Source: Paralichthys olivaceus (taxonomy: Eukaryota; Chordata; Actinopteri; Pleuronectiformes; Paralichthyidae). Taken from it: DNA of 64,000 bases. The notes below the pieces were generated by a model. That model searched no databases. It was not told the DNA's origin and saw nothing but the letters and a program-made list of their open reading frames with translations. Both the position numbers and the translations under genes were made by a program. This document shows positions 951-57,339 of this stretch, one piece after another (the stretch's first letter is position 1; every line of letters starts with the position of its first letter). The DNA is taken from positions 4,922,463-4,986,462 of the forward strand of contig NC_091116.1 in NCBI RefSeq assembly GCF_024713975.1. Reading direction: 5' to 3'.

Positions 951-1334
951 CTGAACAAATTCAAAAAACCTCCACAATCAACACAGGTTAGCAAAAACAA
1001 AGCTAAAGCTAAGGTAGCACAACAACCCGCACCTACAAGATGATTCCCCTCTGTGTACTTCCGCCCTCCCCTCAGTCGTTTCTGATTGCTCCATTAACTT
1101 CCTGGTTGATTTTATGTTTTTATTCATAGTTTTGTTTTTAGCGAAACAACAATTTAACACTAAACGTGTCATTAATAGTTTTTAATTTACGGTTTTATTT
1201 GGTCGGAGACTTGTACTCTGAGCTGTAACCACAGCGCGCCCTGTCACAGAAGGTCCTTGTTAATATGTTAATGAGCTCACTGTGTCTTCACCGAGTCCCA
1301 GCCTCAAGTTCAGCGTCTCATTTAATGAGACCCT

Positions 1335-1834
1335 GCAGTAAACCAAACCTACCACGAGAGGGCGACAAAGGACCAAATCTGATTGCAGTAAACCAAACCT
1401 ACCACCAGACGGCGACAAAGGACCAAATCTGATTGCAGTAAATCAAACCTACCACGAGAGGGCGACAAAGAACCAAATCTGATTGCAGTAAATCAAACCT
1501 ACCACGAGAGGGCGACAAAGAACCAAATCTGATTGCAGTAAATCAAACCTACCACGAGAGGGCGACAAAGGACCAAATCTGTTTGCAGTAAACCAAACCT
1601 ACCACCAGACGGCGACAAAGGACCAAATCTGATTGCAGTAAACCAAACCTACCACCAGACGGCGACAAAGGACCAAATCTGGATGCAGTAAATCAAACCT
1701 ACCACGAGAGGGCGACAAAGGACCAAATCTGATTGCAGTAAATCAAACCTACCACGAGAGGGCGACAAAGGACCAAATCTGATTGCAGTAAACTAAACCT
1801 ACCACGAGAGGGCGACAAAGGACCAAATCTGATT
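1335..1834. repeat. 50-bp minisatellite, ten head-to-tail copies
   Basis: Ten units start every 50 bases from 1335 (GCAGTAAAYCAAACC...). Each contains CCACGAGAGGGCGAC (copies 1, 3, 4, 5, 8, 9, 10) or CCACCAGACGGCGAC (copies 2, 6, 7). Other variation is a few single bases (AAACC/AAATC, AAGGACC/AAGAACC). The core resembles the CTCF motif CCASYAGRKGGCRS with one or two mismatches. There are no spacers, so it is not a CRISPR. It lies between the divergent 5' ends of the nudt15-like and TRIM genes. Confidence 0.95.
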
Positions 1835-2706: not shown

Positions 2707-2962
2707 TACTCCCCTGCATTTAACAGTTTACCACCGACACCCGTTCTCCCCGCTCGACCTGCCTGGTGACTCTGGCCCCACCCAGCTCACCTCTTCCTGC
2801 TCTCACATGAGAGTCAGCATTATCTCCCAGACGTCCAAGCTGAACTCTTTATCCTCTGGATCTTTCTCCTCCACTGTTGTGCTTTAGACATTACTCTACT
2901 CTACGAACTAAAACTTTGCATTCTCTCAGTTTCTTCCTTTTATTTTGCTTGACATCATCACC

Positions 2963-5900
2963 ATGAGTGGTAAACTGTGGACAGAGGAGCAGTTCAACTG
3001 CCCTGTGTGTCTGGACCTCCCCAACGATCCAGTCACCATCCCCTGTGGGCACAGCTACTGCATGGCCTGCATCAAGGATTACTGGAGCAAGGACGACCCC
3101 AAGGGGATCTACAGCTGCCCCCAGTGTCGCAAGACCTTCAGCCCCAAGCCCACCCTGTCCAGGAACACCATGCTGGCAGAAGCTGTAGAGCAGCTTCGGA
3201 AGGGGGCCAACAAATCTGATGTGCGTGATTCTATTCGTAGCGGCCGCAGGGCTTCCTCCTCCTCATCCAAACCCAAAGCGAAGCTCTCCGCAGCAGCAGT
3301 GACCTGTGACATGTGCAAGGGTGACCGACGAGCAGCTGTCAAGAGCTGCCTGGTGTGCATGAGCTCCTACTGCGAATCCCACCTGAAGCCCCACCAGACC
3401 AAGAAGGCCCTGAAGCAGCATGAGCTCATCGCACCCACGGGTAATCTGGCCGAGAAGATCTGCACGCAGCACAAGTACCTGCAGGAGTTCTTCTGTCGCC
3501 AGTGCAAGATCTTCATCTGCTGGCTCTGCACCAGCGACATACACAAGGGCCACGAGTGTGTGTCCACCAAGGCCGAGCGATTGGAGAAACAGGTAATAGA
3601 GTGTGGAGGCTGCAGGGGCCTCAGGATGAAGGGCCCTCAGCCAGTCACCAGGGTGTAATGTGATCTAGTATTGAATTTAAGTGTTGTGTGATGATATTAT
3701 GTATACGACTGTAATTACACACAAGATTCAGTCTGCATACATATACCAGACTCATGTGAGGTCTCCGTGACCTTTGACCTATGGCCACCAAATTGTAATC
3801 ATTATCATTATCTTAAAATTTAGCACAAACTGAATGTTTGTGCTAAATTTTAAGTCGGTCCCTGAAGTCATTCTTGAGATATCATGTTTGGATGGATGGA
3901 CAAACTGTTTCATGGCTCTGACCAGTTGCTGTTAACATACAACAGCATGAAGCTTTCTGTTGGAGCTCAACATGACACCAGCAGACTGAACATTAGTGCT
4001 TGGTTCACTTTAACGACATTAATATGGATCTTAAATGGAAAAAGGTTTCATTTATTTCCGTAAATCCTGTCAGTGGAAAGATGGCAGCTGCAGTAAACAG
4101 CTCCTTACTCCTCCTGCTAACTGTGCATTGTTGTGGTGGATTTCTGTTGATGGTGTCATCCTCTCTGCTTTTGTGGGACAGAGTCTCCAGCAAGCCGAGG
4201 ACATTCCTAACTACATTCCTGTCTATTCATAAAGCTCCACCCTCCCCTGCTGCCTGCTGCGTCATACATGAAGTCGTTTTCCTCCTGCTTGTGTTTTATC
4301 TGTGCGACAGTGATGGGGACGGTTTTGGGTGACGTGTCTTTACTGTGTGTCCATGTGTAGAAACTGATCTCCGAGCTGCAGGTGGGGAATCAGCAGAGAC
4401 TAAAAGACAGAGAGCAGGAGCTCAAAGACATGAAGAAGATGATGGAGGGGATGAAGGTTGGTCTTTCTCATTCAAGGTTCAAGACTTTGTTGTCATGTGC
4501 AGAACAATAACATTTAGCAGTCACTGGCAATGAAATGCTTGGACAAATAAAAAAACACATCAAACATAAGACACAACAGCAAATAATAAAGCACAGAGGA
4601 ATATGAGATGTGTTTTGAGATATGCTGTTGTGTTTTCCCATTGTCATTGTGATTTGCACTTCACGACCACTGTAACCACTTCCTGGAATCACTTCATATT
4701 CTCGTCCCGTCTGCACAGCACTCCTCAAACAGGGTACATGACGACACGGAGCAGATGCTGTCAGAGCTGCAACGCTCCGTGGAGCGTCTGCAGGAGCTCC
4801 TGGACGAGGTGCTGGACCAGGCCAGTGTGGAGAAGATGGGACAGGCCCAGGAGGTGGCGGACAGTCTGGAGGTTGAGATCAGGGAGCTGAAGAGGAGGGA
4901 CGTGGAGATGAAGGACCTGGGGCGCTGCGAAGACCACATTCACTACCTGCAGGTAGAGAGGACTGTGAATCTCTAAGCGGGGTGGGGGGTTAAATCCAGA
5001 AATCTCACACTGACCCTTTAATCACAGCTCATCATCATCACACATTATTTCCACATTAAAGGGGGAGGCCACCTTTTTTACTGACCCCTTTTGTTTTATA
5101 TTTACTCTCCCCCATACTTTCCTTCCAGATGTACGAGTCTATGATCAGTCCCTTGGAGTCGGGGGACCTTCCCACTGTGGTGGTCAATCCAGACGCTACC
5201 TTTGAGCCTGTACGAGATGCCATCCTGGACCTCAGGGAGCGAGTGGAGGACCTGTGCAACCAGGAGCTGAGCAAGATCACCAAACAAGGTGACTCACACA
5301 AGTCTTTTCTCCAGTTTGTTCTGTTTCTTATCACTAATTTACTTCTCTTTTCACACTTAATCATCTTACAATCTAATCATCTGTTTGTTTACAGTTAATG
5401 ACACAACACTGTTCACTTTGAGAGACGGTGAGTTCGAAACGTTTTTCTAAGAATAAAAAAAGTTCAATTTGTGTAAAGAGGACATCTTTCTGAAGAATGA
5501 CTTCCTCTTGCCTTCCACAGCCAATCAGAGCACAGGAGCCAAAGCCGGGATATTAAAATGTGAGTTTTGTATTTTCCTATTAAATACAAATATATAATTT
5601 AATTTTTTCATGATTCAAAATACAAATTTCTCTTTGTGTATAGTGTTTTCTGGTTTGGGATCCCGCAACACAAACAGCCGTTCGCCAGGTATAGTCAGAT
5701 TCTTTTCTCTCGAACGTGGCATCACTTCGTCTTCTCACGCTGTCATCTTAAAAATGAAATAAAAACATTATTATACAATCTTACAGCTTCCTCATCCAGC
5801 ATCTCAGTTGGAGGTCGGAGTACAGACAGAAGAGGACTTGGTACTGACATTTTATTACACTACCACACATAACAACATCAGAAGTCAGTCAATATGCTTT

Positions 5901-8133
5901 TAATGTTAAACATGACATGTAATCGCTCAGGTTTAGGCTTCCAGAGTCAGGATGTGAGGAGCAGAAATACACCACGAGGTGAGACTTTTCTGTTGTCACA
6001 TTCAAAAGAAACTCCTGAAATTACACTAAACCAAGCAGTGAAATGTGTGTGTTTTAAAATGTGCTTCTTCGTTCTTGCAGACATAGGAAACACAAACTCC
6101 CCCAGACAGAGGAGAGAGGAACAAGAGACAGGTCAGTTTGTTTCTTATCACACTAATATATATTCAAGTGTTTATGATAAGTTTCATGATTGGTCATGAG
6201 AGGGACCTTGATACCTCGGCTCCATCTCCGATCGCTTTTGTTCAGACTCTGGCTCCAAATGTGCAAGATGGCATTGTTCATATCGGTTCTTTTAAGAGTT
6301 ATATTGAGGGCTTTCTCCTGATCTTGTCTTTCAAACAGTGAGGGAGACCAACACCAGACCCAGCCCGGCTCCCAGCCGCAGAGAGTCCCAGTCCCTCGGG
6401 AGCAGGTTCAGTCAGAACCAGGCACCCAGTCCGACTCCCAGCCGCAGAGAGTCCCAGTCCCTCTGGAGCAGGTCCAGTCAGAACCAGGTTGCTCCTGCTG
6501 CGTCTCCGACCCCGACTCCAGCTCCAGCTCCTGCATCAACTGGAGGTATAAATTAAACAAACCTCCAGACACTCCTCAGGATTATAACTTTGTTTTTGTG
6601 GCAAATCTTGTACAAAGCAGCTCTCAATTCCTCACTTTTTGTTTGCAAACCCTCTGCTCGGCCAGGGTTCAGTCGAATGGCGTCGATCAGCAGCCTCTTC
6701 CGCTCCCATCGGCGGGGCATCAACCAGGCCACCCCGGCTACCTCAGCAATGCCTGCCAACAACCCAGGAGGAAACCCATGTAAGGCCTTTCGACAGCTCA
6801 TATCCTCTCATCTCTAGTCATAGTATCAAAACCACTACAGTGACTCTACCGGTTGTCTAGGTGCCTCTTATGATAATATGACTTCAATTTGCTATGACTA
6901 TTGAATTTTATACTGTCAAAGTGTGTGACTCTGTTCATCATCGACAGGGGGGATGGATGCTTTGTCCGAAACACCAACAGAAAGTAAGATGGCAGCCTTT
7001 GATTATGGGGAATAGAATATCTGATATGCACGTTCAGTCCTATTCCAAGTTGATTAATACTTATGGGTCTGATGTGTTTTTTTGTTTTTTGACAGTTAAC
7101 CCTGGTCTCTTCTTGGACACACCCACCCCTGACACCATGAATCACGCTCCTGTTTTCCCTGCATGTGAGTTAATGCATCTTTATTTTCACAGTATCTCCA
7201 TTTTTAGACAAGAAACAAGAAAGAAAACTAAGATAAAAGAATGCAAAATAAAGAAAATCAATATGCGTTCTTAAGATTTGTGCCTGGACTGACTGATTGC
7301 TTCATTTTCCAGTGAGAGAAATCAGCCTCGAAAGCATCCAGGCCCCAGAGCCAAGATCCAGAGAGGAGTTCTTGCAGTGTAAGTCTCAGTGTTCAATTAC
7401 AATATTAATTTGATTCTTGCATATTAGATGAGTTTTTTTTTTTTTAGATGAGAGAGTATTATTGATGTCAAGCATCCACTTTTATGCTTCATGAATATTC
7501 TAAATGTTCAAACTGAAGATTTTGTGGATACTTGCTCATTTATCCCTCTCTCTCCCAGTCTCTGTGAACTTGACCCTTGACCCCAACACAGCCCACCGAC
7601 GACTGGCTCTCTCCGAGGGCAACACCAAAGCCATCCTGCAGAGTGCGACTCAGCCCTACCCCGATACACCACAGCGTTTTGACGGCTGGACCCAGGTGAT
7701 GTGCCAGAGCCCACTGAACGCCCAGCACTGTTACTGGGAGGTGGAGTGGAGAGGCCGCGGCTCCTCTGTGGGCGTGGCTTACGGATCCTTGAACAGGAAG
7801 GGCTCAGATGCCAGATCTGGCCTTGGGTACAATGCACAGTCCTGGACCCTGGAGCTCTCAGACACCTGCTGCTCAGCCATGCACGACAATGAGAAGAGGG
7901 ACATACCGGTCACCTACTCCCCCCGTCTTGGCATCTACCTGGACCTGTCCATGGGTACGTTGGCTTTTTACAGTGTGGCAGAGAGCATGACACACCTTCA
8001 CACCTTCCGCACCAACTTCACGCAGCCACTGTATGCTGTCTTCGGGGTGGGGAGCGGAGTCGGGGTGGGTCTGGACTTTGCCCTCGGCAAGTTTACCTCA
8101 AGCAGTGACAGCATTAAGATCTGTCCCATGTGA
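2963..8133 (+). CDS. TRIM-family E3 ubiquitin ligase (RING, two B-boxes, coiled coil, long hinge, PRY-SPRY)
   Basis: Sixteen coding exons join in frame to 818 residues: 2963-3592, 4361-4456, 4719-4952, 5129-5288, 5395-5427, 5521-5559, 5644-5688, 5787-5840, 5931-5978, 6081-6131, 6339-6545, 6666-6779, 6948-6983, 7096-7164, 7313-7378, 7559-8133. RING is at about 13-55 (C13, C16, C28, H30, C33, C36, C52, C55); B-box 1 at 115-144; B-box 2 at 167-197; coiled coil at 211-373, using the family's usual 96- and 234-base exons; hinge at 374-627; PRY-SPRY at 628-818 (LDPNTAH, CYWEVEW). Such proteins ubiquitinate targets recognised by SPRY, often in innate immunity. The start ATG sits in CACCATGAG. The layout resembles TRIM25, TRIM47 and fish finTRIMs; I cannot assign an orthologue. 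The hinge, built from eleven small phase-1 exons, is unusual. Confidence 0.88.
3745..3965. repeat. Copy of a dispersed repeat with hormone-receptor half-sites
   Basis: Intron 1 of the TRIM gene contains GAGGTCTCCGTGACCTTTG, then GGCCACCAAATTGTAATCA and TTCTTGAGATATCATGTTTG. This is the same family as the copy at 61885-62205. TGACCTTTGACCT (3768-3780) is a perfect DR1 element in reverse. A perfect 19-bp hairpin lies within it at 3812-3854. Confidence 0.75.
3812..3854. repeat. Perfect 19-bp inverted repeat, 5-base loop
   Basis: CTTAAAATTTAGCACAAAC, the loop TGAAT, then the exact reverse complement of the first arm. It is intronic in the TRIM gene. Confidence 0.9.
4472..4600. mobile_element. 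3' tail fragment of a non-LTR retroelement or derived SINE
   Basis: Contains AGGTTCAAGACTTTGTTGTC, then ATGTGCA and GGCAATGAAATGCTTGG in TRIM intron 2. It resembles the 3' end of the LINE fragment at 34245-34350 (AGGTTCAAAGG..TTGTCATCTGCA..GGCAATGAAAATCTT). Confidence 0.6.
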
Positions 8134-10589: not shown

Positions 10590-20950
<10,361 letters not shown>

Positions 20951-33826: not shown

Positions 33827-36800
33827 ATGGACAACATGTCTCCACAGCAGCAGCAGCAGCAGCAGCAGGACAGCCTCAGGCGAGGGGGTGCAGGGCAGCA
33901 GGAAAACAAACGGGTATGTTTTTAAAATCCAGATTCTGGTAACACGTGTCTAATTTAAAATGTTAAGGAGAACCCTGAATAGACTCATTTACGCGCATCA
34001 GATTGTCTCCATCCATAGTTATTTCACCATCATGTGCCTGACATGGGGTCACACCCCCCACCCCCCATCACCAATTAGTTTAATAACTAATTAATCATCC
34101 GATGTCATTTTCAAAGCAAATAACGTAAATTCATTATAAGATTTTTTCAATCATGAAAAGAACAATTACCTGGTTTGTTGTAGATCTATAGTTATAGTTG
34201 ACTTGACTGTTGTGTGACTGACATTTGGCAAAATTATTGTGCAGTTTAGGTTCAAAAGGTTCAAAGGTTTTATTTGTCATCTGCAAACAGATACAGCGTA
34301 AATGTTGGCAATGAAAATCTTAAATCCCAGGCACCTCAAGCAGCTCAACATGTAATAGTGTCAGAAAAAATTATAAAATGAGAGTAACTAAAAATACAAA
34401 AATACCAATACACTAGTGCAAATAAACAAGAAAGTACAAATGTCATTAACTAGTGCAAAAAATAAAATAAACATTAAAAGGTGCCAATAAACATTATAAT
34501 AAAACATTATAAGGTGCTAAGGTGAAATATAAACATGTGCAGTCATGATTTAGCAGCAGTTATGGGGAGGTATGAACAGATATGAATTATTGCACTCATT
34601 TATTTTTATGTAGCTTAGAAATATGATGAATAGGAAGATGTAGCAGAATGAGAATTATTATAGACTAAATAAATATAGTTCTTTGTGTGTATGAATATTA
34701 TAATGTGTAAATGAATATGTTGCTATAAACAGATGTAGTGACTTTCACAGAGCTCAGGAGTTCAACAGTCTTATAGCCTGTGGGATAAAACTGTCCCTGA
34801 GTCTGGTGGTCCTGGTCCGGATGCTGCGGTACCGTCTGCCAGATGGCAGCAGACAGGAGAGTTTGTTGCTGGGGTGATGGGGGTCTTTTAATATCCTGTG
34901 AGCCCCCTTCCTACAACGCTGGGTGTAGAGGTCCTCCATGGATGATAGCTCCGTCCTGGTGATGTGCTGAGCAGTTTTCACCACCCTCTGTAGAGTCTTA
35001 CGGTTGAGGGCGGTGCAACTGCCGTACCAGGCCGTGATGCAGCCGGTCAGGATACTCTCGATGGTGCACCTGTAGAAGTTGCAGAGTATCCTGGAGTCCA
35101 TGTTGAACCTCCGCAGCCTGCGGAGGAAGAAGAGCCGCTGACGAGCTGTCTTTGTGATAACTCTGGTGTGATGGGTCCATGTCAGGTCCTCAGTGATGTG
35201 AACCCCGAGGAACCTGAAGCTGCTGACTCTCTCCACAGGAGTCCCATTGATGGTGATGGGGGCGTGTCCATCTCTCTGCTTCTTCCTGTAATCCATCTGA
35301 TATTCAACCTAATATCTATATGTGCAGCTTTTGCCTGTTATTGATTGATTGCTTAGTTCATCAGTGAGTCTGTGGCTGCAAGACGTCATGGTGATGTAAG
35401 AAAAGAGTCCTGCGGCTCTGTCCTTGATGATTGTTTATGTATGTTCTGAGTGTCCCTGCAGGGTTCTGACAATATGAGCAAACGCAGTGATCACTGGGGA
35501 TTTGCATATCCATATGAGAGTAAACCAAACAGCCTAGAAACCTTTAAAACAGCCCAGCTTCCTCTTAGCTGCTGTGTTGGGTCGCTAATATCAGAGCTGA
35601 TCTGGTGTTAGTCAACAGACCAGGAAAGTCATATTTCCACATTAGCTTATTATGTCGCAGTGTATTTTTAGGGCTGAAAGGTAACATTGTAATGTTGTGG
35701 CTGGAGTGTGAGGAATGTTTCACCACTGTGTGACACGACTAAATCAACGATAATAGTTGTGAAATGTCAGAAATGTGTGGACGTGCATGTCGGTGGTTCG
35801 GTGGAGGGGGTTTGATCTATTCTCACTGTGGACTCTTTTAGGTCTGTTTGCACTGAGCATGTTTTAAACTCCGCAGACAAACTGGTGACTGTGGTCGACC
35901 TACTGACGGAGAATGTGACAGAAAAACACACGTTTTCCAAGATATCTCTGCAAAGAGAGGGTCTGCAGGGACGACCTAATGTTTATACTTGTCAGAAAAT
36001 TATTGTTATATAAGAAGAAGTGTCAATGAATCAGAAAAAGTGTTAAAAGTGCTTTTTTCTGCATCTTTGCATCCTGACGCACAACAAACTGAAAATCTTA
36101 AAGCTCAGGTGGAGTAAATAATGGAATAAATGAACTACAGTGTGACCATACCACAGGATGAAATGAATGGTCAGTGATCCATGTGGGGAAATGAGAATCC
36201 AGCAAAGAAAAAGAGGATCTCTATTTGTCTCTAATACAAAATAAATATGCAGCAAAGATATTTTACTGGGTATCTGTGTGAGAGCAGTCAGAGAGAGATC
36301 GAACACTAATCTTCATGTTCCAACATTCCTGTGTTTAATGTCTCCTCTTTCAACCTGCTGCTGTGCTTGTCGTTTTTTGGTCGAGGCCACAGTCAGTCCC
36401 AGTGCTGTGATAAATGGATGGAACATTAAGGTGCCTATATGTAACAAGTGAGAAGAGTAAACATGATGTAAACATGGTGGGATTTGAGCCTTTACAGTTC
36501 TACAGAGCAGCGTGGCTGGAATGAAGCATGAATATTGATGATAGGAATCAAAAAAGCAAATTGTAAGTTGTTCCCATCAAGAAAAGATGAGTGTAATGAG
36601 TTTAGGTTGCCTTCAGTGTATATGCTCAGATTTTGATGAACTATGTTTTGTCTCTTTTAGCGGATGAAGTCTCAAAGTTACCGGCGTCAGTCAGCTCCGT
36701 CTCTGGTCCTCACCAAAGCTCTCACCAGGTCCAAGACCCTCTCCAGGTAACAGCTTTGGTTCAGTTTGTTGATTCAACCACTTTGCTTTTCTACGGGCTG

Positions 36801-51903: not shown

Positions 51904-53383
51904 TTCTCGGACACACGGGAGGATGGAGCAACGCGACACGCGGGCGGGTTCAGTTGACAGCGAGGAAGCGGCACTTTTCTCGAGCTTTTCAGCGGAGAGA
52001 CTCCCCGGAGCTGGCTTCAACGACCGAGTTAGCTTAGCTTTGGCTAGGCTAGATGTTTTAGCTGCAGGACGTCACTGTGTCACCGACATTACGTAACGTG
52101 TCACCGGCGGCAGCTGCTCGTTGTTTGTCCCGCAGGCGATTCGCTCATTGTGCTGCGGTCGTGAAACTAAAGCTGCAGCTTCACTGCTAAAAATTAATGA
52201 GATCAAATTTGAAGGCAAACGTCCCCGAGGAGTTTCCTGACAACAAGAGGAAGTGCTTTCACCGTTAGCGTAACAGCACGACTTTCTGTCAGGGCTCAAA
52301 AAATAAAAGCTTTACCCAACAAAGTACTGCAATTTAACGCAGGTAAATCACTCAGAAGTTAAACCGTGTTAATCGTAAGTTTATATTAATCCTATTTCCT
52401 ATATAGGGACACATTTATCGCTATTCAAATCAGCAGTTTTTTTTAATTTAGACTTTTATTTTCAAGTTGTTCCCCCCAGCTTCCTGCTGTCGCTAACTGA
52501 GGCACGTGTTTACGTAACTTTGCCAAAGAGTTTGTGTTTTTTTTATTTTTTTTTGTTATCAGAGAAGTTTTTCTGATGTTTTTTCGTTTTTGGCAGATCA
52601 TACATTTTTTGGACCTTTACTCTCTTCTCTCCTGCCAAGATTATCACAAAGAAAATAAAGACTTTAGACTTTAAAATAAAGTTTCAAAACAGGCAGCCCC
52701 TCGACACATGATGAGTTAATCAAGGTAGAAACAGCTTTTATCAACAGTGAGGATTTCACACAGGCTATTGACATTCTATATTATCTATATTTCCTTTATG
52801 GAGCTGATTTCATTTTGATACATCCATCAGCACTGAGACTGGGTTATTTTTATTTTCAAATTACTGATCAGTGAATTCTGCCACTGCTTATATATTCCCA
52901 ACAACATCAAAACCCATCATTCACTGTCACATATACACACATGTTGTAATCTCCCCTGTTCACAAGTATTGATTGAGCTGCCTTCGATTAAACCAAGTGC
53001 CGTTCACCATCGATATACTTGCAAGACCCAGAAAACAGGATGTGTACACCATAGCTTGACGTCACAGGACAACTACTGACAGCCTGCTCTTTATTAGCTG
53101 TTATATCAGCGTTGTGTTCAAGACTTTATCAGGCAACACTGATAAGTGCATCAAATATGAGTGATCATCTGTGGGAGATAAAGATTAATGAATGATCACA
53201 TTCAAAGTGAAGGGTTGACATATTAATGAGAAACCTTTTCTGTCTGACTTGCTCAGTGTGTCACACCTGTCTCAGGTAAGCAACACACAATTCACTTAAC
53301 CTACGGAGCTGAAAGAGAACACTACAAACTTAATGTGATAGGTTGCATTTGTCCAGTGTTGCTCTGTGTCTTCTGTTGACAGG
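51904..53383. other. fdx1-lectin divergent intergenic region
   Basis: CpG-containing stretch upstream of fdx1 (51904-52320), a plausible promoter. Towards the lectin gene a donor CTCAG|GTAAGC at 53275 suggests a non-coding first exon, with an acceptor GTTGACAG|G directly before the ATG at 53384. Confidence 0.45.
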
Positions 53384-56300
53384 ATGTTCAGGTTCGTGCT
53401 GCTACTCCTGACAGTGTCAGGTAAGATGACTAAGTCTCTCAGTGTTCATTTGATACACTAAGTGTAGAGGTAAAACGTCTTGATAGTTCCTATCTTATTT
53501 TGTTACTGGATTTATTGGATGCTTTAATTTGCTCACTGAAATATGAGAATTGTTACCAACTGAAACAAATTACTAAAATGATAACCCATGAAAGAATTAA
53601 GTAGGTTATAACAAGTTATTAACACAATTGCTGACTTAAATTTGAAAAATCCTAATGTATTACCAATCGGAATAAAATGTTTTAGTCTTTCCAAAAATGT
53701 TCTTTTTTTGATATAGATTAAGTCATTCTCTTGTTTGTTTGATCCTGAACACTCTTCACATTGATATTTTCATTACAGATCTTGATTCTTCAATTTGTCC
53801 TGTGGAAATTACAATAGCAAGATAATCTTTTCCCATTTCTACAAAGAAGTAATTGTTTGATATTTCCACATCATAATTAATTGTGGCTTTATGGGTTGTT
53901 TCCAAAGCAGAAACATTATGGCAAACAATAGTTTTATCATAACAGCTGACCTCCAGTGTCTGTGCAGAAATTAAACTTTGACCATCAGTGATTTATTACA
54001 TAGTAAAAGAAAAGCTATATAAATTCATCTGGAACAAAAGTTAATAATTGATATGTAAGGCTAGACCGTTATTTGTCATCTTCAAAGGGTTTTTGTTAAA
54101 TCTGCAAGGAGGTCTTAGATTCCTTCAACCAATATCACAGGTCTTCCTTTCTGCCTGTACGTCAACATCTCTAACAGTGAATTAGCAGGACGAGTTGTTT
54201 GCATGATCCTCAGTGTGAATGGGTTTTTAACGATGAACCTAACCTTTCGCAGGCCTCCAAGCCATCCCAATTGCAGTCCTTCGAGGTCTGCAGAAGACAT
54301 CTTCAACCTACCAGCTCCCCGATGGCTTTCAAAAGGGCATCGAACATGCTGACATCCATCGACCCATTCCAGACAGCTTCAGACAAGGTACAGAGCTCTC
54401 CGGAAGGCTCCTTGTTGACCTCAACACTGGCCTGGTGCAAGACAACATCGGTGAGTTTAATTATGGAAACACTGATTAGCCCCAAATCTAAAAAAAACAA
54501 ACAATGGGTGCAATTAGGTCATTTCTGCATTTTGTCCTCTAGCTGTCATCAGCCCCTTTCTTGGGAATGGGTTTGGAGAGATGGAGAGAAGACACTGGCC
54601 GACAGATGAGAGTGAGGAAGCTTTGAAGTTACATTTATTTATAAGATTTTATTTCTAGGAAGATAAATGTAATTTATTCTCCAAAATCTTCAGCTTTTAC
54701 AAATGAACAATATCAATAAACTGTACTTAAAAATTAATTTAGAGGCCCTCTGTCTTCCAGTCCCTGTTGATGTTCCAGCACAGAAGAATGGTGATGGTTG
54801 GGTGCGGGTGGAGGTACCCACTGAAAATCATCTCCCAGATGGTTTCAGACAGGGAACTGAGCCAGAGATGTTGATCCAAGATGGTTTCAGACAGGGAACC
54901 AAACATGCTCATAAGATCCCAGCAGGCTTTAGGCAAGGAACTGAACCCTTCAAGTCTATCCCAGATGGTTTCAGACAGGGAACCGAACCCTTCAAGTCTA
55001 TCCCAGATGGTTTCAGACAGGGAACCGAACCCTTCAAGTCTATCCCAGATGGTTTCAGACAGGGAACCGAACCCTTCAAGTCTATCCCAGATGGTTTCAG
55101 ACAGGGAACCGAACCCTTCAAGTCTATCCCAGATGGTTTCAGACAGGGAACCGAACCCTTCAAGTCTATCCCAGATGGTTTCAGACAGGGAACCGAACCC
55201 TTCAAGTCTATCCCAGATGGTTTCAGACAGGGAACCGAACCCTTCAAGTCTATCCCAGATGGTTTCAGACAGGGAACTGAACCCTTCAAGTCTATCCCAG
55301 ATGGTTTCAGACAGGGAACCGAACCCTTCAAGTCTATCCCAGATGGTTTCAGACAGGGAACTGAACCCTTCAAGTCTATCCCAGATGGTTTCAGACAGGG
55401 AACTGAACCCTTCAAGTCTATCCCAGATGGTTCCAGACAGGGAACAGAACCCTCTGCCTCTAGAATCCAAACACATACAGTATCTTGTAAGGGGGAGGTC
55501 ATCAATGGAAACTGCTATGAGTTCAACCCCACACAAATGGCCTTCCAGGATGCACAGGTTAGACAATCTACAGCAAGACTACTTTGTGACTCTTCAAATT
55601 GAATCTCACAATTTTTTTCTGTGTCCTTTTATTCCAGGTCATCTGCAGAGCTCTTGCCCCAAATGCTGAGCTTGCATCTGTAACCAGCAGCGATTTGCAT
55701 TCTCGCCTAGTTTCCCTGGTGACCAAGGGTGGTGAGAAAAACCCAGTGTTGACCTGGCTGGGAGGCACCATCAAGGCAAGATCATTTTCACTGACAGTTA
55801 CAGTAATTACACATATTCTGAAGTGTTAAATATTAATAGCATGATATTTTAGTTAACTTTCCGTATATCACCATTTTTATACAATGGCTCTCTGAGTATG
55901 ACACCAGCAGTCTGGTCCTGTGGCACTGAATGGAGGCCAAGGAGAGTGTCATCAGATATGTTATCAACAAGACAGATAGTGTTATTCTTACCTTGGTAAA
56001 ACATTGACCTGTGAACTTTTATTTAGAAACCATCCATATGTTTATGTCCTGTTGCTAAGTGAGACCAGAATGCAAAAAAAGTGAAATGGGAAAAAGGTCT
56101 ATTATTTGGAGTCAAATAGATTTTTGTAAATTTGACAAATTATAAGGGACTGAATTTTATGCCTTTTTATTTCTAATCTATAAAATGATGAAGGGATATA
56201 TATATTTTTTTCATGCACTATATTATTTACTATCAGTTACAAGTTACAAGAGACACTGATTTCAATCTTGACTACCAAAATTATTAAAATACAACTAATT

Positions 56301-57139
56301 TACAATATTAACTGCCTACATTGAGTACTTTTACTTTTGATAATTTGAACACAAAGCTTTTTGAAGGTAAGGGCAATAATGTTGGAAATATCAAAGAGTA
56401 TAGTGAGGCTTTGCTACTTTTACTGATGTGAAGGATCGGAGTGCTTCCTGTAAATTGTGTGAAACAAGCTTATATGTCTACATATTTTTGACATACCATA
56501 TGCGTGTTGCCCACCTCAGAACCAGAAGGCATCATGGGTGGACGGCTCAGAATGGAGTTACAGTGACTGGAAGCCGGGCCACCCCAACATTCGCAGTGAC
56601 AAACCTGTTTGTTTGGAGATGTTCCAGATAGGTGGGACCACACTCTAACTCACACACAACACAAACACACACGGCCAATGTGCAAAGGCAGCATTTCTCT
56701 GTATCGGACAAAGAGGCCACTGAAGTGCAACTATAAGTTGAGGTCTTAGTAATAAAAAGGAGCCTTGTTCAATTCAATACAATCAGGGGTTGTGTTAATG
56801 TGGTTGTTACAAGTTCTGGTATGTGCTTGTGTTATAAAACCACTCTTTTAGCTGACTATTAATTAAAGGGTTAAGCTCAGATAACTGCAGGGATAAAAGT
56901 ATTACATGCATTATGAAAGACTGTAAACTGAGTTTATTAGGGTCCTGACCATTTTCTTCGCTTTAAATACCAATTTCTTAAAAACTTGATCTAAGGAATA
57001 TCCTTAAGAACATGTGTTTTGTCTGGCAAGCCAACCATTCAATCTGTCCCTACCCTGTTCTGCAGATGAGAGCTGGTGGACGGCTGCTGACTGTGACCTG
57101 AGGAGAGCATCCATCTGCTCGTACCCAATCATTCTGTGA
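53384..57139 (+). CDS. Secreted C-type-lectin-domain protein with 14-residue tandem repeats
   Basis: Seven coding exons join in frame to 474 residues: 53384-53420, 54253-54450, 54543-54611, 54761-55557, 55638-55775, 56520-56631, 57066-57139. A signal peptide (MFRFVLLLLTVSGLQA) precedes a region with 17 copies of a PDGFRQGTEP-type motif: two loose copies in exon 2, three loose and twelve near-identical in exon 4. The C-terminal 130 residues (from about 344) are a long-form C-type lectin domain with six cysteines, WLGG, WVDGSEWSYSDW and ASICSY. The Ca2+/sugar motifs (EPN or QPD, WND) are absent. The domain resembles eosinophil major basic protein/PRG2 and fish ladderlectin-like proteins. The repeat region matches no family I know. 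Intron 5 uses a GC donor (AAG|GCAAGA). AATAAA is at 57220. Function is unknown. Confidence 0.85.
54949..55452 (+). repeat. 42-bp coding tandem repeat, twelve exact-length copies
   Basis: Twelve units of 42 bases, each coding FKSIPDGFRQGTEP (the last has S for F after DG and is followed by SAS). Apart from that, the differences seen are synonymous, at the threonine codon (ACC, ACT or ACA). Three looser units lie at about 54829-54948. Confidence 0.97.
55776..56519 (+). other. Lectin gene intron 5 (GC-AG)
   Basis: Starts GCAAGA and ends CACCTCAG. No other feature seen. Confidence 0.6.
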
Positions 57140-57339
57140 AGACCACAAAGAAACAAATACAAGAGAGTTAACATCTTGATCTCTCTTGCAGACAACATAG
57201 TCTCTTGTTTGTCTCCTTGAATAAAACTTTAAGATTTTATCTGCGTGCGTTTGTTTCCTCACCTTAGCCGAAGCAGTCACTCTTCATTCTTCTTTATACT
57301 GTAAATATCTAAGCCACCCATTTATATTAAATTTAGACA

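What the first reader, a model, noticed from the sequence alone, without database searches (positions are those of the whole stretch)
54829..55452. Lectin-domain protein with a 42-bp coding repeat array of no known family
A secreted C-type-lectin-domain protein carries fifteen repeats in one exon, twelve at exactly 42 bases coding FKSIPDGFRQGTEP. I know of no C-type lectin with this module. It has no dibasic cleavage sites, no cysteines and near-neutral charge (K, D, R, E), so it does not look like a mucin stalk, a propeptide of major basic protein or a neuropeptide precursor. It could be a multivalent binding surface, an elastic spacer or an ice- or mineral-associated repeat. Function is speculation.
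Basis: partly seen in the sequence, partly recalled or inferred. Interest (0 to 1): 0.82.

Follow-up and report, generated by a model that had tools for sequence, protein, structure and literature searches.

The report
Fish lectin-domain gene carrying repeated hexapeptide
This looks like an unstudied fish gene for a secreted protein whose floppy middle carries a short peptide word (RQGTE) many times over; relatives keep the word but change the spacing, the copy number and sometimes even lack the lectin domain, which suggests that the repeated word is a working part.

Summary
The array is real: 15 units of exactly 42 bp in one exon (54829-55452) of a gene for a C-type-lectin-domain (CTLD) protein with a signal peptide. 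Eleven units, not twelve, read FKSIPDGFRQGTEP; the twelfth has F>S. The gene matches Paralichthys olivaceus LOC109639758 and belongs to a fish family often named wu:fa56d06; our searches found no paper on it. Relatives share a core, [F/R]RQGT[E/Q], repeated every 14 residues in most acanthomorphs, 23 in one goby, about 36-43 or more elsewhere, with different linkers. In the window, diverged units change core codons mostly silently and linker codons only by replacement. AlphaFold leaves the array unfolded and folds the CTLD. The CTLD lacks EPN/QPD and WND motifs and is absent from all 21 cyprinoid models among 218 records, which keep the repeats. Best reading: a secreted, disordered, multivalent short-motif array with an unknown partner, joined to a non-canonical CTLD. 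Partner, tissue and role are not shown.

The parts
53226..53275 (+). 5' leader exon (3' part; its 5' end was not determined); the deposited P. olivaceus model starts translation here (MRNLFCLTCSVCHTCLR)
   Evidence: P0024 N-terminus read in the window, donor ctcag|gtaagc
53383..53420 (+). exon with ATG 53384 and signal-peptide-like start MFRFVLLLLTVSG
   Evidence: first residues modelled as a helix
54253..54450 (+). exon carrying two diverged motif units and a single ancestral-type stretch LLVDLNTGLVQDNI
54315..54347 (+). diverged unit LPDGFQKGIEH
54366..54398 (+). diverged unit IPDSFRQGTEL
54543..54611 (+).
   Evidence: in frame, AG and GT flanks; present in P0024 and P0051
54761..55557 (+). 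array exon, continuing into the start of the CTLD
54829..55452 (+). tandem array, 15 units of 42 bp; core GFRQGTEP, variable linker
55486..57136 (+). CTLD coding part, interrupted by three introns
   Evidence: Lectin_C residues 337-446, E=4.1e-10; coordinates read
55638..55775 (+). CTLD exon with GC splice donor
56520..56631 (+). CTLD exon with HPN in place of EPN/QPD
57066..57139 (+). last coding exon, stop codon; WWTAADC in place of a WND-type site
57220..57225 (+). AATAAA polyadenylation signal
   Evidence: read by eye

Best explanation
The gene encodes a secreted protein with an intrinsically disordered array that displays a short linear motif ([F/R]RQGT[E/Q][P/N]) many times, followed by a CTLD that lacks the canonical calcium and sugar motifs. 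Replication slippage or unequal exchange changes the copy number and homogenises the units; selection preserves the core in each copy. The array most likely binds one or a few partners (soluble, cell-surface or mucosal) by avidity, and the CTLD may add a second, probably calcium-independent contact. SHOWN: the open gene structure in DNA, the array, conservation of the core against linkers, different periods in different lineages, no CTLD in the cyprinoid models retrieved. INFERRED: secretion, disorder (from AF2 confidence), slippage, function of the motif, the role of the CTLD. UNKNOWN: partner, tissue and physiological role.
For: Period detection without reference to the motif finds arrays in 178 of 219 sequences (218 homologs + window); 177 of 178 consensus units contain RQGT although the best period is 14 in 88, 41 in 16, 28 in 15, 23 in 2 and other values from 15 to 127 in the remaining 57. 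In 109 proteins with at least four 14-aa units the per-protein consensus has Q, G, T in 109/109 and F, R, E in 108/109, while at linker positions 1-3 the commonest residue reaches only 28, 50 and 66 of 109. A search by CTLD words alone gave 89 proteins, 83 with [RK]QGT[EQ] or RQGTK; the six without are two with degenerate repeats (P0193, P0195), an apparently frame-shifted model (P0205) and three fragmentary models (P0216-P0218). In the window, diverged units against the consensus unit: core codons 9 silent/3 replacing, linker 0/10, Fisher p=0.00046. Array pLDDT 31-42; CTLD blocks mostly 82-97, with 57 and 74 in two; longer ancestral-type units also mostly below 50. All 21 cyprinoid models in the 218 records (17 species, by names; assignment to cyprinoids recalled) keep the repeats without a CTLD, and no named full-CTLD record is a cyprinoid.
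Against: No partner, expression, mass-spectrometry or mutant evidence was available. The core was defined partly from these same relatives; favour proteins that share the motif's words (one search does not), one search kept only units with five of seven core residues, and the core was chosen after seeing relatives. That test rests on 22 codons of four related units, and 3 core changes are replacements. 41 of 219 sequences gave no blind array, many with few or diverged units. Low pLDDT is not proof of disorder; the alignments were shallow (61 and 31 rows). The core could be kept for glycosylation, cross-linking or processing rather than binding. Takifugu flavidus P0053 has FSQGTEP as array consensus. 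The cyprinoid CTLD absence rests on gene models, and 73 and 68 hits were not listed.
Confidence: 0.45

Rival explanations
1. Mucin-like or gel-forming spacer: the array is an extended, perhaps O-glycosylated or transglutaminase cross-linked stalk that holds the CTLD away from a surface or builds a mucous gel; the conserved T (GTEP), S and Q are modification sites.
For: Low AF2 confidence, Pro/Gly-rich and Cys-free; an almost invariant Q and T per unit. Copy number varies.
Against: A spacer should conserve composition and length, not a hexapeptide; here linker sequence and period change (14, 23, about 36-43 aa and more) while RQGT stays. No CTLD in the cyprinoid models removes the thing to be spaced. 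The array Lys is not conserved (K at position 2 in 4 of 109), against a Q-K cross-link within the unit.
Confidence: 0.2
2. Polyprotein precursor: furin or prohormone convertases cut at RR sites and release small peptides such as QGTEPS and FLVDLNTGLVKEHISEMD; the acanthomorph array is a modified descendant.
For: In many non-acanthomorph relatives the unit reads like ERRQGTEPSRRFLVDLNTGLVKEHISEMDRR; R33, R34, Q35, G36, T37, P39, S40, R41 of P0171 are at least 90% conserved among 31 rows.
Against: The window's array has single R only (FRQGTEP), and the holostean Amia unit has SQA where SRR stands elsewhere; a precursor with a C-terminal folded CTLD is unusual (general knowledge).
Confidence: 0.12
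3. Neutral minisatellite inside a gene: slippage created and homogenises the array and the repeat has no function of its own.
For: Units 4-14 are identical or differ by one silent C/T change; deposited models differ by whole units.
Against: Homogenisation within a species does not explain the same core across ray-finned fishes with different periods, nor silent-only change in the core of units 1 and 3.
Confidence: 0.12
4. Ice-binding or biomineral protein (type II antifreeze- or struthiocalcin-like).
Confidence: 0.03

Closest known systems
wu:fa56d06 family (Danio rerio LOC795664; P. olivaceus LOC109639758)
   Same: Same family: signal-peptide-like start, [F/R]RQGT[E/Q] repeats and usually the same CTLD; window equal to P. 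olivaceus P0024 in the parts compared outside the array
   Different: Period, linker and copy number; the zebrafish models have long units and no CTLD. No paper found in the searches named under Tried and rejected
Rlecs of Macrobrachium nipponense (PMC7536079; abstract and sections 2.1 and 2.6 read)
   Same: Secreted C-type lectin with a variable tandem repeat (30 or 33 bp, 1-9 copies) between signal peptide and lectin domain; more repeats gave stronger LPS/PGN binding and bacterial clearance in that paper
   Different: Crustacean multigene family, EPN motif present; here apparently one gene, 15 units in one exon, no EPN. Homology of the repeats was not tested
Type II antifreeze proteins / struthiocalcin / lithostathine
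   Different: From general knowledge they lack the array; fold ranks are tied with ordinary lectins
Eosinophil major basic protein (PRG2/PRG3)
   Same: Small secreted CTLD with an N-terminal extension, weak PDB match (E=1e-4; E=3.2e-8); one relative is named proteoglycan 3-like
   Different: Here the last 155 residues have pI 5.9 and the array 6.98, against a basic domain with an acidic pro-part in MBP (recalled)

Membership tests
wu:fa56d06 fish family | RQGT[E/Q] repeats after a signal-peptide-like start, usually before a CTLD | tested here: met
wu:fa56d06 fish family | CTLD groups with acanthomorph members | tested here: met
   38-row CTLD tree: P0024 (same CTLD as the window) within the 17-row acanthomorph branch 100/100 and with Pleuronectes and Limanda 96/98
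C-type lectin domain superfamily (PF00059) | Lectin_C match above the gathering score and CTLD fold | tested here: met
Canonical calcium-dependent sugar-binding C-type lectin | EPN or QPD motif and WND motif (motifs recalled) | tested here: not met
   HPN here; EPN or QPD in 0 of 61 rows, HPN in 44; WTAADC here (per-column counts)
Canonical calcium-dependent sugar-binding C-type lectin | measured sugar binding | not testable with these tools
   needs a glycan array
Rlec-like repeat lectins | tandem repeat of variable copy number between signal peptide and CTLD | tested here: met
   repeat position; copy number differs between deposited models:
Rlec-like repeat lectins | EPN motif in the lectin domain (as described in PMC7536079 section 2.1) | tested here: not met
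Type II antifreeze protein | 10 cysteines in the CTLD (number recalled) | tested here: not met
   6 Cys in the 131-residue CTLD
Eosinophil major basic protein | acidic pro-part followed by a strongly basic CTLD (recalled) | tested here: not met
   array pI 6.98, last 155 residues pI 5.9
Collectin / SP-D (name given to some relatives) | collagen-like Gly-X-Y region | tested here: not met
   none seen in the translated protein; only Lectin_C is above its Pfam cut-off
Neuropeptide precursor | dibasic sites flanking each repeat | tested here: not met
   none in the window array; present in non-acanthomorph relatives

The most novel reading that the evidence does not exclude
A ray-finned-fish secreted protein family is built around a conserved short linear motif (RQGT[E/Q]) that evolution has re-amplified with different linkers and periods, the lectin domain being an accessory that cyprinoids discarded; the motif would be a dedicated extracellular ligand for a partner not yet known.
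Probability: 0.3. Interest if true: 0.75.

Novelty: new variant of a known kind. Interest (0 to 1): 0.5.

Why it matters
A widespread fish gene family with no paper found, present in zebrafish, offers a natural experiment in which a peptide word is kept while linker, period, copy number and even the attached domain change. If the motif binds something, repeat number would tune avidity, and copy-number variation in farmed fishes such as flounder could be tested against traits. It also warns annotators: relatives carry misleading names (pan1-like, RNA-binding protein 12B-like, SP-D, ladderlectin) and two relatives give above-cut-off Pfam hits that look false.

Tried and rejected
Literature: the gene symbol, FRQGTEP, 12 locus ids and LOC795664 gave 0 papers in the held open-access library. 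Six peptide strings gave 36 papers, 20 listed, all 20 matching only 'sipdgfr', taken from their subjects to be siRNA names for PDGFR; none was opened and the other 16 were not seen. Broader searches showed no paper on this family in the listings seen. Supplementary files were not searched. [quoted passage not shown] one relative here (P0001, Sander) bears that name, but identity with this family could not be shown, so it is not used.

Known repeat family: in five relatives no NCBIfam family meets its cut-off. PF27023.1, listed for several relatives, does not appear in the Pfam scans here, so what it models is unknown. Chordopox_A33R (below cut-off), CotJA, SelB-wing_3 and similar hits are read as noise from the CTLD start or from repeats.

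Canonical splicing between array units as the source of isoforms that differ by whole units: the consensus unit of the window has no AG|GT or AG|GC junction in register, so exact removal of whole identical units cannot use canonical sites; the cause (polymorphism, template switching, assembly) is unresolved, and DNA of the other species was not seen.

PRG2/EMBP orthology: charge does not fit. Of 10 window ORFs scanned, four had Pfam hits (RING/B-box, PRY-SPRY, Milton, ALKBH8_N), none of which supplied a PRG2 context; synteny was not tested in other fish genomes. RNA families: none at gathering score in the window.

Full report
Observation. The array is present as described. The gene model has exons 53383-53420, 54253-54450, 54543-54611 (possibly alternative), 54761-55557, 55638-55775, 56520-56631 and 57066-57139, with a 5' leader exon ending at 53275; the coding junctions are in frame and the introns are GT-AG but one GC-AG. 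Without the 69-nt exon the protein has 451 residues, with it 474. Fifteen units lie exactly 42 bp apart in one exon; eleven encode the exact unit and a twelfth has F>S. Two diverged units lie in exon 54253-54450. A 23-base core occurs 12 times in the 588-Mb assembly, only here, and 0 times reversed. No transcript was examined.

Identity. The window protein equals P. olivaceus LOC109639758 (P0024) over the N-terminal 78 residues and all of the sequence after the last unit. By length P0024 has 9 fewer units and P0051 11 fewer. The three protein searches gave 193, 188 and 89 hits (120, 120 and 89 listed), 218 distinct records held. The named sources seen are ray-finned fishes, including the holostean Amia (P0141; classification recalled). 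In the own genome the only other matches at E<=0.001 are two weak ones to the CTLD part (C20 E=1e-5, C13 E=6e-4), so this looks like a single gene.

What is conserved. Period detection that did not use the motif found an array in 178 of 219 sequences and RQGT in the consensus of 177; the exception, Takifugu flavidus P0053, has FSQGTEP. Best periods were 14 (88 sequences), 41 (16), 28 (15), 23 (2, both Knipowitschia) and other values from 15 to 127 in 57. In 109 proteins with at least four 14-aa units, Q, G and T are the consensus in 109 of 109, while the first three linker positions vary; that count kept units with at least five of seven core residues, so it is partly circular. The CTLD-only search avoids that bias: 83 of 89 hits carry the motif, and the six misses are degenerate, apparently frame-shifted or fragmentary. 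In a CTLD tree of 38 rows all 15 rows with 14-aa arrays, the single 23-aa row and Centroberyx (few units) lie on one side of a 100/100 branch, the acanthomorphs (root drawn at the midpoint). The 14-aa label needs 3 changes on that tree (starred branches force 2), for example one gain plus departures in Knipowitschia and Centroberyx, so a single origin is likely but not shown.

Selection in this window. Units 1, 2, 3 and 15 against the consensus unit: 9 silent and 3 replacing codon changes in the core (GFRQGTEP), 0 and 10 in the linker, Fisher p=0.00046 (core chosen beforehand from relatives, units not independent). Units 4-14 differ only by one silent C/T site, the mark of recent homogenisation.

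CTLD absence. Of 218 records, 176 have a full CTLD, 13 a partial one and 29 none. Of the 29, 21 are cyprinoid models (17 species by the names, including zebrafish; grouping recalled), three are catfishes or a knifefish ending early in the CTLD, and five are probably incomplete models (Solea, Dallia, Salvelinus alpinus, Oncorhynchus gorbuscha, Paramisgurnus). Loaches, a sucker and characins keep it, as does one catfish, Trichomycterus. All 21 cyprinoid models contain RQGT four or more times. This argues that the array does not exist only to serve the CTLD. It rests on gene models, and unlisted hits could differ.

Mechanism. The pattern - near-invariant short core, free linker and period, many copies, predicted disorder, likely secretion - is that of a multivalent short linear motif (general knowledge). 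A precedent for repeat number tuning a lectin's activity exists in prawn Rlecs, where more repeats gave stronger LPS and PGN binding and bacterial clearance (PMC7536079, abstract and sections 2.1 and 2.6). I found nothing on partner, tissue or function of the fish family. Rivals are a modified (glycosylated or cross-linked) spacer, a precursor of small peptides (dibasic sites flank QGTEPS in many non-acanthomorph units), and a neutral minisatellite.

Verdict.

Noticed in passing
window 1334-1834: Ten-copy tandem repeat of a 50-bp unit, 95% matches.
   Followed up: no
window 2912-8130: TRIM-type parts: RING and B-box ORF (2912-3655) and PRY-SPRY ORF (7504-8130), with a two-copy 66-bp repeat at 6358-6488 inside another ORF.
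   Followed up: partly
window 12348-12743 (-): ORF with a Milton (TRAK/HAP1-type kinesin-associated) match, E=1.7e-28.
   Followed up: no
window 34757-35308 (-): ORF matching ALKBH8_N (E=1.8e-13), which from memory is often a piece of a non-LTR retrotransposon reverse transcriptase.
   Followed up: no
P0040, P0036, P0044, P0046, P0059, P0060, P0068; P0027/P0066; P0012/P0070; P0024/P0051: Deposited isoforms of one gene differ by whole 14-aa units in four species; canonical splice sites in register are lacking in the window's consensus unit, so the source is unexplained.
   Followed up: partly
P0019, P0111 (relatives): Above-cut-off Pfam hits that look false: CotJA (26.8 against 25 bits) and SelB-wing_3 (32.1 against 23.2 bits), each with 0 single stretches passing on their own.
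   Followed up: no
P0001, P0011, P0037, P0085, P0095: Database names for relatives are misleading: pan1-like, RNA-binding protein 12B-like, surfactant protein D-like, ladderlectin.
   Followed up: no
several percomorph relatives, e.g. P0001, P0090: Pfam accession PF27023.1 is precomputed for them, also where the CTLD is cut (P0090), but did not appear in the Pfam scan of P0001 here; it may model the repeat or the N-terminal part.
   Followed up: partly
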